NCBI GenBank assembly: GCA_023701205.1
Contig: JAMPXJ010000005.1
Location: 1-64,000, forward strand
Length of the DNA stretch: 64,000 nucleotides
Reading direction: 5' to 3'
Origin: Oligoflexia bacterium
GTDB lineage: Bacteria > Bdellovibrionota > UBA1018
The first letter of the stretch is position 1, and every line of letters begins with the position of its first letter. The notes under the pieces were generated by a model. The model saw only the letters and a program-made list of their open reading frames with translations, ran no database searches and was not told the origin of the DNA. This document shows positions 36,313-54,512 of the stretch, piece after piece. The position numbers and the translations under genes were made by a program.

Positions 36313-37179
36313 ATGCGCACGACGTGGCGGCTCGAATTTCTCGCAGGCGGCGCGCTTCTGCTCGCCGCGACGGCAGGCGCGGCTCCGAGCTCGCATCCGC
36401 CGTTTGCCTCGAAGAAATGCAAGAGCTGCCACGTCCTCGCGCCCGACAAGACCCCGATCCCGGATCAATTCATCGCCGAACAGCCCGATCTCTGCTACAA
36501 CTGCCACGATCGTGTCGACGAGAACCCGATCGTGCACAAGGCTGTCAAGAACGGTGACTGCACCGATTGCCATATGGGCCACGAGAGCCCCAATCGGGCG
36601 CTTCTGCAGGACAAGATCAAGCCGCTTTGCAGCCAGTGCCACAAGGCTCACTCCGGCAAGCAGCCGTTCGGGCATTCGGCGCTCGACATGCGCAATTCCT
36701 GCGTGCACTGCCACTTCCCCCATTCTTCCGAGAAGAAGAAGCTGATGAAGGACAAGCCAGCCGCGCTCTGCGTGACCTGCCATACGGACTTCAGTCGGAA
36801 GATAGACGAGCCCGGGATGAACATCCATTCGGCCATGGAGAGCGGCTGCCAGAGTTGCCACAACGCCCATGGAGCCAAGAACGACAAGCTTCTCATCCAG
36901 GGACTGAACGACCTGTGCTTCAAATGCCATGAGCAGGAGGACTACACGGATCATCCGCGCGCGGGCCACCCGATCGGCGGGCGCCCCGACCCGGTGCACC
37001 CGGAGCGTCCGATGAGCTGCATCTCCTGCCACAAGCCGCACTATTCGAAGAACGCGAACCTCTTCCGTTACAATTTCAGGCAGGGGGAAACCCCTTATGA
37101 CGGGACGATCTGCTCGGTCTGCCACTGGCAGACGATCCTGCCGCCGCCGGGGCCGCCCAAGCCGAACTGGAACGATTAG
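36313..37179 (+). CDS. decaheme c-type cytochrome
   Basis: A 288-residue exported cytochrome (signal LAGGALLLAATAGAA) with ten CXXCH motifs: CKSCH, CYNCH, CTDCH, CSQCH, CVHCH, CVTCH, CQSCH, CFKCH, CISCH and CSVCH. Haem density, one per 29 residues, and the paired spacing are those of doubled-CXXCH cytochromes, comparable in size to MtrA/DmsE periplasmic decahaems but without clear MtrA identity. It starts 2 bases after the NrfJ-like stop. It may move electrons across the periplasm to or from the outer membrane. No outer-membrane porin (MtrB-like) is encoded next to it. Confidence 0.93.
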   Translation: MRTTWRLEFLAGGALLLAATAGAAPSSHPPFASKKCKSCHVLAPDKTPIPDQFIAEQPDLCYNCHDRVDENPIVHKAVKNGDCTDCHMGHESPNRALLQDKIKPLCSQCHKAHSGKQPFGHSALDMRNSCVHCHFPHSSEKKKLMKDKPAALCVTCHTDFSRKIDEPGMNIHSAMESGCQSCHNAHGAKNDKLLIQGLNDLCFKCHEQEDYTDHPRAGHPIGGRPDPVHPERPMSCISCHKPHYSKNANLFRYNFRQGETPYDGTICSVCHWQTILPPPGPPKPNWND

Positions 37180-37745: not shown

Positions 37746-40700
37746 CTATTGACTGAGGAGCTGAAACAGGCGTACGCATCTGTCCCGCGCGGAGGAGATG
37801 GCATTTTTGAGCCCCCCACCCAGCACCTCACGGGCCTCGGAGAGAAAGACCTTGGAGAGCTCGAGATCCAGATGCTCCCGGAGAGCCAGCCCGAAGCGCA
37901 CCGAACCGAGCTCTTCCTGGTTTCCGAGCAGTTTGGCCAGGCCTGAAATCGCGGCGCGGGGATTTTCCTTCAGGGGGAGACTGAGGACCGTGCCCGACTT
38001 GGCCAGTGCCTCTTGGAGAGAGGAGCGCAGGACGTATAGCCTTTCAAGTGGCTTCTTCCAGCTGGGCAGATCCTTTCTCGTGAAGATTCTTTCGAGAATC
38101 CCTTCCAGCCTCTCGGGAGTGACTCTCCCGGAATCGACCTGTTCCAGGCCGAAAATCCGCCCCAAAAGCGGTGCCAATCGGCGAGCGCTCTCTTTGTCCG
38201 GACGGACCTGAAGCAAGGTGGCGACGAATTCGCGGACCGCCTCCTTCTCGCCAGGCTCCGAGAGCGGCCGGATCTGAGCATAGTCGATGCGAACCATCCT
38301 CCGCCGTCCCCGATCGTAGAGCCAGTTTCCCCGATGGCCGTCCGGATCGAAAATCCCTCGACTGAAGAGCGCTTCGAGCTCGGAGTTCACGATCGTCCGA
38401 GCCACCTGTCGACGCTCGCGGGCGGTGAGCTCCTTGAAGGGGGTGGCCTCGACATATTCATAGACCGAGACCTTCGACTGGAATTCCTCTGGAACCAGCT
38501 TCTGTATGGATCGGACCGGCTGTGCCACCTCGACCGTCAGGTCCGCCTGGTTTCGCGGCACTCGTCCGTACGCTTCCTGAGCCAAGGGCGCCTGCCGGCG
38601 TTCGATGCTCTGGTCGAGATCCAATCCACCCCCGCGCAGCGGACCGATCGCCGTCGCAAGCGCTTCCTCGGCGGCACTCGCCAGCTTAAGCTCCTCCCTC
38701 ACTCCGCTCTCTTTGAGCTTCCTCACGGCTTTGGCGAGGATCTCATGCTCATTCGCGGCCCGTCCCTCCACGAAATCGCGTTGGATCCGGACCACCACCT
38801 GCTTTGGCTTCCGCGTTTCGGGATCTCGGATCTCGGCCTGCACCACGTAATTCACGGTGCCGGAGCCCACCAGCTCATTGACTGCCCGGACATCGATCAA
38901 CTCACGGCCGAAAATCTTCTGGAGATCTTCGTAAATCTTGGCCCGATTGGGAGGCGCCGCTGAATCCAGAAGCCCATCAAGCTCCTTTGCCAAACTCGGA
39001 GCGACAAGGCCGCTGGACCGCAGGAACTGACCGATCCGGATGCCTAGGGGCCCCATGCCCTCAAGGATCTTGGATAGGGGCGCGCCATCCAGGTAGCCGG
39101 CTCCAGTGACACTCGCGAGCATGTGACTGTAAACGAGGCGCCGTTGCTCGGCCGGGACCGATTCGAGATAGGTCTCGAGTATCCGCCGAAAGAGCGGATC
39201 CTGATACCGATCGCCCAGGATGGTCTTGAGAATCTCCCGCGCACTGTCCGGATCGGCAAGCAGGCCCTTGGCCTCGTCCAAAAGAGGCTGAAGGGCGAGC
39301 GAGCGCGCCAGGGCCCCCGCGCTTTGGAAGTGCTTCCGGGTCGCGGCCAGGTATCCCCTCCCGTCCCTGCCCGCGATGCTCTCGAAGCGATCCAGCAGCT
39401 CGCGTGAAGGCTCATCCGTCACCCCGAGCCAATATTGGATCAGACTCCATCGCTCGTCCTGGGAATTCAGGCGGTTGATCAGGGTCCGGTATGCATCAGC
39501 GGCAATGATCTGCGGATAGTTGAACCACTTCTGAGGATCGATGCGGAGCTTTGCGAGAAATTCGCTTTCCGCCCGCGTCGCAAGAATCCTCCGCTCGATC
39601 TCATCGAGAAGCTGGTCCCGAACCTCGCCTTTGGCCGGAAACTGTTTTTGCACCAGCTCGGAGATCTCCCGGGTCTTGTTTCGAATTTGCTGGGTGGGCA
39701 GACCCGTTCTCCCGAGCGAGCTCAGGTCGGTGGCCTCGAGCTGGTAGCGCGCGAGCCGGAGCTGGTTCTCGCTGAAGGAAAGACTGCGGACCAGGCGAGG
39801 ATCCCGAAGCAGCTCCGAGGGAAGCTCGCCTTTTTTGGCCTCATCCAGGAGCGACGTGATCAGCGAATCCCAATGGTGAGCGGTATAGCGACTGACGCCT
39901 TCGCCCTCGCTGGTAACCAGAAATCGCCGAAGGAGCTCGACCCTATCGGAGATCGGAATGGTCTTGAGCTGCCCGCCCGCAAAGCGTTCCCGCGAGAGCA
40001 TGATGAAGTCCGATAGGATCTGGGACTGGTCCACCTTCGCATAATCGCGGAGCCCCTTCCGAGAGGCATGCCGGTTCTGCGCATCCCAGAGATCAAAAAG
40101 CGCGCGGAGCTGCGCGGCGGGAGACCTGAATTCCGCCGTGAAAGACTCGTAGAGATCTGGAGTGATGTTGGCGGAATAGCTCTTCGTCGGGTAGAGCTCC
40201 CCCAAAGTCGAAACGAGCTCGAGTGCGCCCGAAGGCGCGCGGCCACCGCGCATCTCCCGCCGCTGAGCGGAACGGACCCAGGACAGCCCCTCCTCCCGAG
40301 GAACACGCAAGAAGGTTTCCCTCAGGAGCTCGGAGTCCTTCGGAACGGCGTGCTGCCTCTCGCGAAGCCGGTCGAGGATCCAGCGATTTTCGTCAGGCGG
40401 CAATTCCAGCTTGAATCCGAATGGCATTTGCAGATGCAGCGACGCATTCAAGGCCACCTCCCTGGAAACGCTGATCCCTGGAAGGCTCCTGAGCTTCTGA
40501 TACGAGAAAGTCGAATAGAACTTGTTTTCGGAAGCCGGAAGGCGGGCCAGCCTCTCGACGCGCTCCTGGATCGCCGACGGCGGCAGATCGTCGAAAACCG
40601 CGGCCCATTCCAGCTCGCGAAGCAGCTTCTGCGCGTCCGTCCTCGCTCCCGAGAGCCAGTGTTCGCGGAGATCCCGGTCCGCGCCCCTCAGCTCCACTCC

Positions 40701-42269
40701 CAGCGCTTTCAATGTCCGGTAGTCTTCCACTCTTTCGGACAAGCTGGCTTCAGAGGCCCCGGAGATCGCTTCGAGCCAGCCGGCGCGGAGGTTCGATGCC
40801 ACCTCGGAAGAATCAAGAAGCTCCTGCAGCGTGGCGCGGGCGCCCAACCCGGACCCGTCGAGAGCCTCGATGATCGCCCGGATCCGGAATTCCCCTCGAC
40901 TCGGATCACTCAACAGGGATCGGGCGAAGTCCGTGAAGGGCCCTCGGATCGCTGCTTTCTCGGCCTCGCCTGTCAGACTCAGCGAGCTCATCAGAGACAA
41001 AAGCCCCCTTTGCAGCCGAATCCGATCCCGCGATTCCACGATGGCCTCGGGAAAGACCTTCTCGCTAAATTCCCGCAAACGCCGAGCGCGTTCTGTCGGA
41101 GCAAGTCCCCGAAATGCCTCTTGGAGGAGGTCCCAGACCGCGCCGTCCCGTCCCCAACCTCCAATCCGGGGCTGACCGATGGCTGCGCGGACAAATCTCT
41201 CCGCAAAACCCGCCGGAGCTTCGCTGCCGGGAGTTTTTCGAAACTCCCGATAAATCGCGGCGCGCAGCGAGACGGGATGATCATCCTGCTTCAGCAACTC
41301 AAAGAGTCCTCGGTTGACTTGATCCGCGAGCCGCGACTTCGCCTTTTGGAGGGCAGCGCCCTCCTGTAGGTCTCCGAAGATCCTGCCCGGCCCTTCCATC
41401 GCCAACTCGAGCTCTTCCGGCTTCCAGACCGGCCGGGTGAGCGCGACGACATCCTTTCTCACCTGGTCCTCGAAGCGGCTGAACTGCCTCCAGCGCTCCT
41501 TCATGAAATTCGGATCGTCGAAAAGCGATTTCAGCCGCGAGTTGACGAGAGCTCTTTTTCGCTCGTGATCAGGAGGAAGGGGCTTGCCGAGATTTCGGCT
41601 CTCATGGGTCAGGAGGACCTCGATCGAGTCCTGCCGCACGTCGCTGGAGACATGAGTCTCACTGACGCGGCCGCCATCGAGCTTTCGCAGCTTGTTCATG
41701 GCCGAGTACGCGGCTCGCGGATTGTAGCCCTGGCGGAGCATCCGATTCAGAGTGCTTTTGGCGTCCACTTCCAGCTCGACGACACGCTCGGTGAGAAGCG
41801 AGGTCGAGACCTTTTGCAGATCCGAGGTCAGATGCTCGAGCTCATGTCCCAGGACGAACGCGAGTTCATCGTCTGACTCAACCAGCTTCAACAGGCCGAG
41901 CGTGACGATCACGGCGCGCTTACCGAAGGGAGTCGCCATCACCGCGGCGTTTGGAGTCAAATCATCGATCAGTAACAACGGCAGGGCTTCGGGACCGTCT
42001 TTCGGAAGCCGGATCCGTTCAAGCATCGCCTGAAGTTTCTGTTGAGCGTCGATCAGCCGGGAGTCCGTCGCGCTCCCTGGACGCGCATCAATGACGGACC
42101 AGTGGTTCCTGGTCAGCTCACTCTGGATCTCGGCCGGGAGTTCCCCCAGCGGCGCCGAGGCCAAGCGACCGTCCAAGCGGCCGGCCGCCGCTTCGGACAA
42201 AGGCAGGCTCAGGGAAATCAGCAAGCCAAGCAGAGGGTTCGCGATTGCGGGCAAGCGGGCTAAGTCCAC
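37746..42269 (-). CDS. exported M48 metallopeptidase fused to UbiB/ABC1 kinase-like domain
   Basis: A 1507-residue protein beginning with a GTG codon and an export signal (PLLGLLISLSLPLSEAAA). Residues 95-230 hold an M48 peptidase site: GHELEHL (His142, Glu143, His146) and ELEVD with Glu165 as third zinc ligand. A long helical, repeat-like middle (about 250-1050) has no recognised domain. Residues about 1060-1335 resemble the UbiB/ADCK (ABC1) atypical kinase: GIRIGQF where K-x-G-Q is expected, GSGTVNYVV as the loop, VVVRIQRD where VAVKVQ is expected, FDPDGHRGNW (1307-1316, the D-x-H-x-x-N site) and RIDYAQI (metal Asp 1329). Both invariant lysines are arginine. It is not clear whether the domain is active or a pseudokinase. 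Confidence 0.8.
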   Translation of the reverse strand: MDLARLPAIANPLLGLLISLSLPLSEAAAGRLDGRLASAPLGELPAEIQSELTRNHWSVIDARPGSATDSRLIDAQQKLQAMLERIRLPKDGPEALPLLLIDDLTPNAAVMATPFGKRAVIVTLGLLKLVESDDELAFVLGHELEHLTSDLQKVSTSLLTERVVELEVDAKSTLNRMLRQGYNPRAAYSAMNKLRKLDGGRVSETHVSSDVRQDSIEVLLTHESRNLGKPLPPDHERKRALVNSRLKSLFDDPNFMKERWRQFSRFEDQVRKDVVALTRPVWKPEELELAMEGPGRIFGDLQEGAALQKAKSRLADQVNRGLFELLKQDDHPVSLRAAIYREFRKTPGSEAPAGFAERFVRAAIGQPRIGGWGRDGAVWDLLQEAFRGLAPTERARRLREFSEKVFPEAIVESRDRIRLQRGLLSLMSSLSLTGEAEKAAIRGPFTDFARSLLSDPSRGEFRIRAIIEALDGSGLGARATLQELLDSSEVASNLRAGWLEAISGASEASLSERVEDYRTLKALGVELRGADRDLREHWLSGARTDAQKLLRELEWAAVFDDLPPSAIQERVERLARLPASENKFYSTFSYQKLRSLPGISVSREVALNASLHLQMPFGFKLELPPDENRWILDRLRERQHAVPKDSELLRETFLRVPREEGLSWVRSAQRREMRGGRAPSGALELVSTLGELYPTKSYSANITPDLYESFTAEFRSPAAQLRALFDLWDAQNRHASRKGLRDYAKVDQSQILSDFIMLSRERFAGGQLKTIPISDRVELLRRFLVTSEGEGVSRYTAHHWDSLITSLLDEAKKGELPSELLRDPRLVRSLSFSENQLRLARYQLEATDLSSLGRTGLPTQQIRNKTREISELVQKQFPAKGEVRDQLLDEIERRILATRAESEFLAKLRIDPQKWFNYPQIIAADAYRTLINRLNSQDERWSLIQYWLGVTDEPSRELLDRFESIAGRDGRGYLAATRKHFQSAGALARSLALQPLLDEAKGLLADPDSAREILKTILGDRYQDPLFRRILETYLESVPAEQRRLVYSHMLASVTGAGYLDGAPLSKILEGMGPLGIRIGQFLRSSGLVAPSLAKELDGLLDSAAPPNRAKIYEDLQKIFGRELIDVRAVNELVGSGTVNYVVQAEIRDPETRKPKQVVVRIQRDFVEGRAANEHEILAKAVRKLKESGVREELKLASAAEEALATAIGPLRGGGLDLDQSIERRQAPLAQEAYGRVPRNQADLTVEVAQPVRSIQKLVPEEFQSKVSVYEYVEATPFKELTARERRQVARTIVNSELEALFSRGIFDPDGHRGNWLYDRGRRRMVRIDYAQIRPLSEPGEKEAVREFVATLLQVRPDKESARRLAPLLGRIFGLEQVDSGRVTPERLEGILERIFTRKDLPSWKKPLERLYVLRSSLQEALAKSGTVLSLPLKENPRAAISGLAKLLGNQEELGSVRFGLALREHLDLELSKVFLSEAREVLGGGLKNAISSARDRCVRLFQLLSQ

Positions 42270-42343: not shown

Positions 42344-42841
42344 CTACCCTCGGGCATTGAGCCGCTCCACATCCATCTCGGCCGGGAAACCTTTGCCCCG
42401 CCAGCGCATCGTCTGATGACCGCCGTTGCGGATTTTCTCGGAGACGACCTCGGCCTCGATCACGGAGTTGAAGCCTTTTTCGACCGCCTGGAAGGCCAGG
42501 CGCAGGATGGTTTCGTCGCGGTCGCCGCAGTTTTCGACCCGGAGCAGCTCCTTGGAGCGGCGAAGCACGGGAAGAGCGCGCTTCTGCGTTTCGAAGAAGA
42601 AGTAAGTCTCCCGTGCGCGTTCCATCAGCTCCCGATAGATCACGAGCGCCGGCTCCACGTGAAGCGCATAGCATTGCTGACAGTAATCGGTATGTGCCAG
42701 CTCGGGCGGGAGCTTCGCGTAAAACAGAAACGCCTCGGGCCCTCCGGCCTCTCGGCAGGATTTGCAAAGGGCGGCTCCACAGCTTTCGCACTGAAGCGTG
42801 GGCTGGGGTTTGCGGCAGGTCCTGCAAGCTTCCTGATTCAT
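42344..42841 (-). CDS. zinc-ribbon protein
   Basis: A 165-residue cytoplasmic protein. The first 60 residues hold four C-x-x-C pairs (CRTC, CESC, CKSC, CQQC), a B-box-like double zinc ribbon that could bind two zinc ions. The rest is helical (LIYRELMERARETYFFFETQKRAL) with a C-terminal stretch rich in charged residues. A competing frame at 42330-42866 lacks the zinc motifs. The gene is divergent from the GDT1 gene, and both have ribosome sites. Function unknown. Confidence 0.75.
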   Translation of the reverse strand: MNQEACRTCRKPQPTLQCESCGAALCKSCREAGGPEAFLFYAKLPPELAHTDYCQQCYALHVEPALVIYRELMERARETYFFFETQKRALPVLRRSKELLRVENCGDRDETILRLAFQAVEKGFNSVIEAEVVSEKIRNGGHQTMRWRGKGFPAEMDVERLNARG

Positions 42842-52670: not shown

Positions 52671-54512
52671 TCAGTGAGCGCCGCCCAGAGCGTAGTGGAT
52701 GCACCTTCCCGCCGGAGCAAGTAGCGAGGCCGCGGCGTACTCCTGCGGGAGCGGATTTCCCTCCCCGCGCTTGCGCAGGATCTGCTCGCCGAACTGCGTT
52801 GCGCCCGGCGTGAATTCCGCATGGAGGCGTTGATAGGCAGCATAGAAATCGGGAGCAAGCCGATTGGCGGCTTGATACGGGCGGAGGGCGTCGTACCTCC
52901 CGTCGCTAAAGCGCTCCTCGATTGCCTCGTGGCGGTCCTGACCATCCGGATGGTCCGCCATGAGCCGGGCCACCGCTGAGTCGGTTACGCCGAAGTACCG
53001 GCTCACGTAGCTCGAGAACTCGCCCCAGCCGCGATGGATCTGTGACTGGTCGGCGCCCGCCGCGAGCGCGGTTTCATGTCCAAGCCGGTCGGCCTGCCAT
53101 TCGGCTCCGCGCGAGTGGGCCATCAGGGCCGCGAGCGGGGCGAAGAACAAGACTTTCATCCCGGCATTGGCAGCGGCGCTGGTGATCAAGGAGCTGGCCA
53201 TGGCCTGAGGATACCAGGTGAGGAACGTGACGTCGCCGAGAAGCCCCAACCCGCCGCCCAGGCTCGTCACCGCGGCGGCCGTGCTGACCGCGATCCCGAT
53301 GCCATTGGCGGTATAGTTGAGGGCATTGACATAGGGCATGCGCTTTGTTGTGTGTCTTGCGGCCACGTGGCCGATCTCATGGCCAAGCACGAGAAGCACG
53401 CTGTCCAGATCCGAGAGAATGCCGAGCAGCCCCGCCGTGATGAAGATGTCGCCTCCGGGATATGCCCAGGCGTTGGGTTGCCAGGTCGCGGCGATTCGGC
53501 ACTTGGGCCAGACGTCAGCAGGAAGCTCGTAGACCTGAGCCAGGTAGTCGCAGGCGGACTGGATCAGCGCGCTGGCATCGGGATCGTTGACGATCGTGGC
53601 GCTCCCGACCTCCTTGGCGAGATCCGTGCGCCATTTGGCTTCGGGAGGCAGGTTTTCGCGCAGGTTCCGCAGAGCCCCCGTGAGCTCTTTTGAGAGGTGC
53701 GCTCGATCGATCCGGGCCCGGAGCTCCGGCGAGCGGTAATCGGGCGCCAGCTCAAATCTCTGATTGTAGACTGTCAGCGGCGCGCCCGTGGAGGCGAGCG
53801 CGGACTCGGCGGCGTTGGCTGCCAGGGCTTGGCGGATGTAAGGCGTGAAGAGGGCGGTCTTCGCGATCAGCTCTTCAGCTTTGTCGCCCGTGACCGCGAG
53901 ATCGAGGCCGTGGAAGACCTGATTGACGGAGTTCCCGAGGTTCAGGCCTCTTTCGCCTCCTGCGTGAATCGTGGTTCCGCCGAGCTGGATCGAGGAGCCG
54001 ATGACGAACTCTTCGCCGAGATTGAGTGTCTCGCCTCCACCGAAGGTGAAGCTGATTCCGACTGTCGTCGAACGGACGTTGGTCACGCGGATATCGTCGC
54101 GGATTCCATACAAGGTTCCTTTGTGAAAATAGGGAACCAGACGTTTGCCATCCTCGAGGCGGATGGTCCTGATCTGGGAGGACGCCTGTCTGATCTCGTC
54201 GGAGGATCCGAGGTATTTTGCGGGTACCGTCACACCGACGAATTTCTTCGAGAGCCACTGGCTCTTAAACATCGGGAAGAGGGGGGCGACGCGCATGGGG
54301 GAATCGGGGCCCTGTGCGGCGAGGGGAAAGTCTTTTGGAAGAATAAATCCGCTGCTGTCGATGAGAAAGGCGGGAAGCAGCCCATCGAGTTCCCTCTCAC
54401 CCAGGGTTTCGAGCGTCGCGCCTTGGGTGGCTGCTGGCGCAGCGACGAAGCCGAGCACGAGCACCAAGAGGAGGGAAGGAAATGACCGGGGGACCGCGGA
54501 TGGGTACTTCAT
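52671..54512 (-). CDS. exported M48-family metallopeptidase
   Basis: A 613-residue protein with signal peptide (LLLVLVLGFVAAPAATQGA). The N-terminal half is beta-rich (GGETLNLGEEFVIGSSIQLGG). The M48 domain follows with GHEIGHVAARH as the zinc-binding HExxH and GAEWQADRLG carrying the third ligand. Hydrophobic stretches near AVSTAAAVTSLGGGLGLLG may touch the membrane. Similar in kind to periplasmic BepA/LoiP-type peptidases, but larger. The upstream gap 54513-54789 is AT-rich and has no gene. It may help envelope protein quality control. Confidence 0.88.
   Translation of the reverse strand: MKYPSAVPRSFPSLLLVLVLGFVAAPAATQGATLETLGERELDGLLPAFLIDSSGFILPKDFPLAAQGPDSPMRVAPLFPMFKSQWLSKKFVGVTVPAKYLGSSDEIRQASSQIRTIRLEDGKRLVPYFHKGTLYGIRDDIRVTNVRSTTVGISFTFGGGETLNLGEEFVIGSSIQLGGTTIHAGGERGLNLGNSVNQVFHGLDLAVTGDKAEELIAKTALFTPYIRQALAANAAESALASTGAPLTVYNQRFELAPDYRSPELRARIDRAHLSKELTGALRNLRENLPPEAKWRTDLAKEVGSATIVNDPDASALIQSACDYLAQVYELPADVWPKCRIAATWQPNAWAYPGGDIFITAGLLGILSDLDSVLLVLGHEIGHVAARHTTKRMPYVNALNYTANGIGIAVSTAAAVTSLGGGLGLLGDVTFLTWYPQAMASSLITSAAANAGMKVLFFAPLAALMAHSRGAEWQADRLGHETALAAGADQSQIHRGWGEFSSYVSRYFGVTDSAVARLMADHPDGQDRHEAIEERFSDGRYDALRPYQAANRLAPDFYAAYQRLHAEFTPGATQFGEQILRKRGEGNPLPQEYAAASLLAPAGRCIHYALGGAH

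What the first reader, a model, noticed from the sequence alone, without database searches (positions are those of the whole stretch)
37746..42269. Exported fusion of an M48 metallopeptidase and a UbiB/ABC1-like kinase domain
One 1507-residue protein has an N-terminal export signal, an M48 zinc site (GHELEHL, ELEVD) and, after some 800 residues without known domain, a C-terminal ABC1-like fold with FDPDGHRGNW and RIDYAQI. ABC1/UbiB proteins normally work in the cytoplasm or mitochondrial matrix on quinone synthesis. I know of no protease-ABC1 fusion that carries a signal peptide. Both invariant lysines (K-x-G-Q and VAVK) are arginine (RIGQ, VVVRIQ), so the kinase may be dead, altered or use something other than ATP.
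Basis: partly seen in the sequence, partly recalled or inferred. Interest (0 to 1): 0.85.

Follow-up and report, generated by a model that had tools for sequence, protein, structure and literature searches.

The report
Exported protease–UbiB-kinase-like fusion protein
A 1507-residue bacterial protein with an apparent export signal joins a zinc protease to a kinase-like domain of the UbiB/COQ8 type, and the same arrangement recurs in at least 33 genomes of its phylum and in giant proteins of a distant phylum, so it is a real, apparently undescribed protein family rather than an assembly error.

Summary
ORF 37746-42269(-) is one 1507-aa frame with a signal-peptide-like start, an M48 domain and an ABC1/UbiB domain, both above Pfam cut-offs. 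AlphaFold2 plus Foldseek place the C-terminal part with COQ8A and mycobacterial UbiB proteins (E=3e-10), the N-terminal part with M48 peptidases. It is no frameshift or misjoin: at least 33 of 369 genomes of the phylum (Bdellovibrionota) carry long frames of this family, and giant Omnitrophota proteins show M48, 890-1460 aa, ABC1 in the same order. Zinc ligands and kinase metal/catalytic residues (D1310, N1315, D1329) are kept in most members. The beta-3 lysine is Arg in this clade and often lost elsewhere, where a WNK-position lysine commonly appears; the KxGQ lysine is Arg mainly here. New: 29 of 33 intact members have a cysteine within the last 21 residues (1.1 expected); here it is the only cysteine. 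Best reading: an envelope protease tethered through a helical arm to an altered UbiB-type head that binds a ligand. Activity, location and role are untested. A new architecture of known domains.

The parts
37746..42269 (-). whole gene, 1507 aa, GTG start
42183..42269 (-). signal-peptide-like segment, residues 1-29 (AAA|G end)
   Evidence: sequence and hydropathy; family members likewise start with a hydrophobic segment; no predictor run
41565..42092 (-). M48 metallopeptidase domain, residues ~60-235
   Evidence: Pfam PF01435, AF2 pLDDT mostly 75-93, Foldseek 3c37 E=3.4e-4, BepA, HtpX
41832..41846 (-). HELEH zinc motif, residues 142-146
   Evidence: H142, E143, H146 kept in 32-33 of 41 rows
41763..41777 (-). 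ELEVD, residues 165-169, third zinc ligand E165
   Evidence: E165 31/41, D169 38/41
41634..41654 (-). HVSSDVR, residues 206-212: the M48 HPx4R active-site plug (BepA H246..R252), with P changed to V
   Evidence: H206 31/41, R212 38/41; PMC7950410
39963..41564 (-). long helical region, residues ~236-769, no family match
   Evidence: low confidence, all helix
39090..39962 (-). pre-kinase helical region, residues ~770-1060, shared with Omnitrophota proteins and absent from ordinary UbiB
   Evidence: profile comparison E=8.6e-8; UbiB frames match the C-terminal profile only from about column 78 on
37950..39092 (-). ABC1/UbiB kinase-like domain, residues ~1060-1440
   Evidence: Pfam PF03109, AF2 pLDDT 87.4 pTM 0.85, Foldseek COQ8A 3.4e-10
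39027..39038 (-). RIGQ, residues 1078-1081 (KxGQ with K changed to R)
   Evidence: K in 32 of 41 rows
38850..38867 (-). GSGTVN loop, residues 1135-1140 (in place of the UbiB Ala-rich loop)
38787..38798 (-). VVVR, residues 1158-1161 (VAIK with K changed to R)
38322..38351 (-). FDPDGHRGNW, residues 1307-1316, catalytic D1310 and metal-binding N1315
   Evidence: D1310 35/41, H1312 36/41, N1315 31/41
38277..38285 (-). DYA (DFG equivalent), residues 1329-1331
   Evidence: D1329 38 of 38 rows with a letter
37776..37778 (-). C1498, only cysteine of the protein, 10 residues from the C-terminus
   Evidence: 29 of 33 intact members have Cys in the last 21 residues, 1.1 expected

Best explanation
A cell-envelope (probably periplasmic) two-headed protein. 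Shown by sequence and model: an export-signal-like N-terminus, an M48 zinc peptidase domain with its full active site, a long all-helical arm, and a UbiB/COQ8-type kinase fold that keeps the catalytic and metal-binding residues but has lost the usual beta-3 lysine, ending in a conserved lone cysteine. Inferred: after Sec export the M48 domain cleaves envelope or incoming proteins held by the helical arm, much as BepA uses its TPR repeats. The UbiB-type head binds a ligand (nucleotide, quinone or other lipid head group) with a divalent metal and gates or positions the protease, rather than acting as an ordinary ATP-driven protein kinase. The C-terminal cysteine anchors the protein or pairs it with a partner by a disulfide.
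For: M48 and ABC1 in one frame; fold matches to COQ8A/MSMEG_1954/Rv3197 and to M48 3c37/BepA. Active-site residues of both domains conserved over 41 divergent rows. Hydrophobic start and no further membrane segment in this protein. C-terminal cysteine 29/33 against 1.1 expected, not seen in neighbouring exported proteins (9 of 73, 9.7 expected). BepA precedent for an exported M48 with helical repeats (PMC7950410). The own genome also has an ordinary 571-aa UbiB-type frame, so quinone synthesis is covered elsewhere.
Against: Location rests on hydropathy only. Protease activity and ligand binding are untested. About 8 of 41 rows lack HExxH and some lack kinase residues, so neither activity is essential to every member. 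The middle model is low-confidence (pLDDT mostly below 50), so 'solenoid' and substrate-holding are guesses. No conserved neighbour points to a pathway. The cysteine could have another role.
Confidence: 0.4

Rival explanations
1. A secreted weapon or tool for cell-cell interaction: the protein leaves the cell and works on or in another cell (prey, host), where ATP is available, with protease and kinase-like head as two effector activities.
For: The two phyla in which it was found include predators and host-dependent bacteria, and Omnitrophota giant proteins have been proposed to act in predation (PMC10066038); large size, patchy and fast-evolving distribution, no operon partners; most Omnitrophota members keep the VAIK lysine and HADxHxGN, as if ATP were used.
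Confidence: 0.25
2. An exported but catalytically competent UbiB-type ATPase or small-molecule kinase acting on quinones or isoprenoid lipids at the outer face of the membrane, with the protease as a regulator.
For: Catalytic D, N and DFG D kept in most rows; 13 rows without the VAIK lysine have a lysine in the nucleotide loop at the WNK position (WNK precedent in PMC4718504); A-to-G in the nucleotide loop raised ATP use in ADCK3 (PMC4718504) and this family has GS[GA]S; Cqd1 is a UbiB protein on the p-side (PMC8346625).
Against: No ATP is expected in the periplasm; this protein has Arg at VAIK, Arg at KxGQ and Asn at the WNK position, so it lacks all the candidate lysines; the link between loop lysine and VAIK loss follows clades (Fisher p=0.09, not corrected for relatedness).
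Confidence: 0.2
3. A pure pseudokinase scaffold: the C-terminal fold only binds a partner protein, no ligand or metal.
For: Loss of the VAIK lysine; some members lose catalytic residues too.
Against: D1329 invariant (38 of 38), D1310 and N1315 kept in 31-35 of 41; a pure scaffold would not be expected to keep exactly these.
Confidence: 0.12
4. Artefact: frameshift, misassembly or chance motif matches.
For: None found.
Against: Same order and residues in more than 30 genomes and a second phylum; even codon composition.
Confidence: 0.01

Closest known systems
UbiB/COQ8 (ADCK3) family, PF03109 / TIGR01982
   Same: kinase-like fold, KxGQ-position helix, ExD-position insert, catalytic D-N-D set; Foldseek top ten all UbiB proteins
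   Different: apparently exported, fused behind protease and helical arm, loop GSGT instead of AAAS, VAIK and KxGQ lysines are Arg; far below the UbiB equivalog cut-off (48 of 488 bits); tree puts family and ordinary UbiB on separate well-supported branches
BepA and other exported M48 peptidases (LoiP, 3c37)
   Same: exported M48 with HExxH, Glu ligand and H-x5-R plug; BepA also has a helical repeat domain after the peptidase
   Different: about 1250 further residues, kinase-like C-terminal head, no TPR match, P of HPx4R replaced
Cqd1 (yeast UbiB protein)
   Same: UbiB-type domain on the p-side of an energy-converting membrane (PMC8346625)
   Different: no protease, no bacterial signal peptide, role in CoQ distribution
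Omnitrophota giant ORFs (PMC10066038)
   Same: eight of the giant frames examined here contain M48 then ABC1 in the same order
   Different: 2400-3900 aa and longer, extra N- and C-terminal parts, more canonical kinase motifs; the paper mentions neither UbiB/ABC1 nor metallopeptidase

Membership tests
ABC1/UbiB-like kinase fold (PF03109) | Pfam score over curated cut-off | tested here: met
   26.7 against 22.9 bits
ABC1/UbiB-like kinase fold (PF03109) | UbiB-type two-lobed kinase fold | tested here: met
   pLDDT 87.4, COQ8A E=3.4e-10
ABC1/UbiB-like kinase fold (PF03109) | catalytic D, N and DFG D | tested here: met
   D1310, N1315, D1329
ABC1/UbiB-like kinase fold (PF03109) | KxGQ motif | tested here: not met
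   RIGQ here; K in 32 of 41 family rows
ABC1/UbiB-like kinase fold (PF03109) | Ala-rich AAAS nucleotide loop | tested here: not met
   GSGT here, GS[GA]S in family
ABC1/UbiB-like kinase fold (PF03109) | ExD motif of the N-lobe insert | tested here: inconclusive
   DLD (1217-1219) here, E in over 90% of family rows
ABC1/UbiB-like kinase fold (PF03109) | beta-3 (VAIK) lysine | tested here: not met
   R1161; R in 12 and K in 7 of 41 rows
UbiB orthologue (TIGR01982) | equivalog cut-off 487.55 bits | tested here: not met
   48.4 bits; a separate 571-aa UbiB-type frame exists in the genome
Peptidase M48 (PF01435) | Pfam score over curated cut-off | tested here: met
   33.3 against 20.3 bits
Peptidase M48 (PF01435) | HExxH plus downstream Glu ligand | tested here: met
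   HELEH 142-146, E165
Peptidase M48 (PF01435) | HPx4R active-site plug | tested here: inconclusive
   H206 and R212 in place, P replaced by V
Peptidase M48 (PF01435) | M48 fold | tested here: met
   3c37 E=3.4e-4; BepA 6ait and HtpX 3cqb with weaker E-values
Peptidase M48 (PF01435) | zinc-dependent proteolysis | not testable with these tools
   needs purified protein

The most novel reading that the evidence does not exclude
A bacterial counterpart of the secretory-pathway kinases: an exported UbiB-type enzyme with a rewired lysine, physically coupled to a protease and covalently anchored by a new C-terminal cysteine tag, shared by Bdellovibrionota and Omnitrophota for interaction with other cells.
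Probability: 0.15. Interest if true: 0.9.

Novelty: new variant of a known kind. Interest (0 to 1): 0.68.

Why it matters
It would place a UbiB/COQ8-type kinase fold outside the bacterial cytoplasm and tie it to a protease, opening a route to learn what the poorly understood UbiB fold does when quinone synthesis cannot be its job. The lysine changes in a family that keeps its metal-binding residues are natural variants for testing how these atypical kinases handle nucleotides. The arrangement in two distant phyla that include predators and host-dependent bacteria, and the near-C-terminal cysteine, may point to an undescribed anchoring or interaction device.

Tried and rejected
Frameshift or misassembly: rejected. 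Conserved operon partner: none; all-against-all comparison of flanking genes found only the family itself shared by all 41 loci. Lone N-terminal cysteines in some neighbouring exported proteins looked like possible disulfide partners but are not recurrent homologues. Plasmid-borne copies: none. Phage and defence libraries: only weak matches to two PHROGs of unknown function, and none in PADLOC. Sequence search of solved structures gave only weak M48. The middle region as a known repeat: Foldseek gave only generic helical repeats. MYXO-CTERM-like anchor: rejected because no membrane segment follows the cysteine. A named-genome scan with the 31-row alignment failed for lack of conserved stretches; the 6-row one worked. 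Loop-lysine/VAIK-loss association: p=0.09 and clade-bound, so only suggestive. The last notebook entry says the ExD Glu was lost as L1216; corrected here: the aligned residue is D1217, a conservative change.

Full report
What is there. The frame 37746-42269 on the minus strand is one open frame of 1507 codons beginning with GTG, directly after an in-frame stop. Codon-position GC is even throughout (GC3 0.64-0.77 in 150-codon steps). Pfam finds two domains, both over their cut-offs: M48 at 76-153 and ABC1 at 1156-1350. NCBIfam gives TIGR01982 UbiB over 1061-1352 with E=5e-13 but only 48 of the 488 bits needed for the equivalog, so it is UbiB-like, not a UbiB orthologue. The genome has a separate 571-aa UbiB-type frame and eight other M48 matches.

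A family, not an oddity. A search of 97 relatives, and then of 369 genomes of the phylum with full-length and C-terminal profiles, found long frames (1000-3350 aa) of the same family in at least 33 genomes, some with two to four copies (G041 has two divergently placed neighbours; G115 has four). The list of matches is cut, so 33 is a lower bound. Pfam confirms M48 plus ABC1 over cut-off in one frame in three other proteins and weaker pairs in several more. Record titles of matching contigs name Bdellovibrionota and Bacteriovoracaceae, which identifies the phylum. Flanking genes of the 41 loci share no other gene family.

Second phylum. The same scan hit a 2821-aa protein in a Candidatus Omnitrophota record. 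A search of 193 genomes of that phylum found more, and eight Omnitrophota frames of roughly 2400-3900 aa (some incomplete at a contig end) have M48 followed 890-1460 residues later by ABC1 (M48 i-E 3e-12 to 6e-20, ABC1 i-E 4e-31 to 4e-50). With most of the kinase left out, the region just before it still aligns between the two phyla (222 columns, E=8.6e-8), so the shared C-terminal stretch is about 600 residues, besides the M48 domain. The Omnitrophota paper reports giant ORFs with few annotated domains and mentions neither UbiB/ABC1 nor metallopeptidase (PMC10066038). Three literature searches for such a fusion or for an exported UbiB found none; the library holds open-licence papers only.

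Structure. AlphaFold2 on residues 975-1507 with 31 family rows gave pLDDT 87.4, pTM 0.85; the ten best PDB matches are all UbiB proteins: COQ8A, MSMEG_1954 and Rv3197 (E 3e-10 to 1e-7). Residues 28-980 gave a good M48 part (blocks of 75-93 over most of it) and a low-confidence, all-helical rest; Foldseek matched the M48 part to 3c37, and more weakly to BepA and HtpX.

Active sites. Across 41 rows, H142, E143, H146, E165, D169, H206 and R212 are kept in 31-38: HExxH, Glu ligand and the active-site plug known from BepA (PMC7950410). In the kinase, Q1081 is kept in 36, G1135 39, D1310 35, H1312 36, N1315 31 and D1329 in 38 of 38. The VAIK position is R in 12, K in 7 and otherwise mostly L, Y, S, Q or M; KxGQ has K in 32. 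Nine members of this protein's clade, itself included, have loop Asn and VAIK Arg; 13 others have lost the VAIK lysine but have a lysine in the nucleotide loop, which I place at the position where WNK kinases keep theirs (motif recalled from memory; the WNK beta-2 lysine itself is described in PMC4718504); five have both. That this loop lysine takes over is an inference by analogy. The ExD motif is DLD here and E-x-D in most members, so in this protein KxGQ K-to-R and ExD E-to-D both changed conservatively. Omnitrophota members mostly keep the VAIK lysine and a HADxHxGN-type catalytic loop.

C-terminal cysteine. Members are very poor in cysteine (2.7 on average in the body). Yet 29 of 33 intact C-termini have one in the last 21 residues where 1.1 are expected, often followed by C-x-x-hydrophobic-hydrophobic; neighbouring exported proteins show no such excess (9 of 73, 9.7 expected). 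In this protein C1498 is the only cysteine, so it cannot form an internal disulfide. Its role (disulfide to a partner or dimer, attachment, other) is open.

Tree. In a maximum-likelihood tree of 50 kinase domains, the 36 Bdellovibrionota fusion domains are one side of a branch (99/96), the five ordinary UbiB domains one side of another (100/100), with Omnitrophota domains on the UbiB side. This argues against a recent capture of the local ubiB gene. Long branches make details unsure.

Interpretation. Shown: architecture, predicted folds, conserved residues, distribution, C-terminal cysteine. Inferred: export (hydropathy only), envelope location, protease activity, ligand binding by the UbiB-type head, anchoring by the cysteine. 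Envelope protease with ligand-binding head 0.40; secreted cell-cell tool 0.25; exported active ATPase/kinase 0.20; pure scaffold 0.12.

Noticed in passing
window 37776-37778 and family C-termini: Cysteine within the last 21 residues in 29 of 33 intact members against 1.1 expected, often C-x-x-hydrophobic-hydrophobic: possible new C-terminal tag.
   Followed up: partly
L108:6382-6771 (own genome contig 26): Remnant of a second family copy: only a C-lobe fragment, 69% and 57% identical to the L038 protein of the same genus, in a 214-aa frame.
   Followed up: partly
window 52671-54512 (-): A further M48 peptidase with a signal-like start, 613 aa, about 10 kb from the fusion gene.
   Followed up: no
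window 42344-42841 (-): 165-aa protein with a cysteine-rich, B-box-like N-terminus (weak Pfam matches), about 75 bases upstream on the same strand.
   Followed up: no
window 36313-37179 (+): Multihaem c-type cytochrome with five paired CXXCH stretches, resembling DmsE/GSU2203-family decahaem cytochromes.
   Followed up: no
L100:2-1051 (+): Neighbour of a family member ends in CSKFYSGK, resembling the family member's own end CRQFYKGGLAR: the cysteine tag may occur on other proteins.
   Followed up: no
L035:16075-17340 (-): Exported neighbour with a single cysteine near its mature N-terminus in KCDLGSLLAQV, resembling the C-terminal KCDLSAILSVV of the nearby fusion protein.
   Followed up: no
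L079, L080, L082, L087, L098: Family members without an intact HExxH but with most kinase residues kept, so the two domains decay independently.
   Followed up: partly
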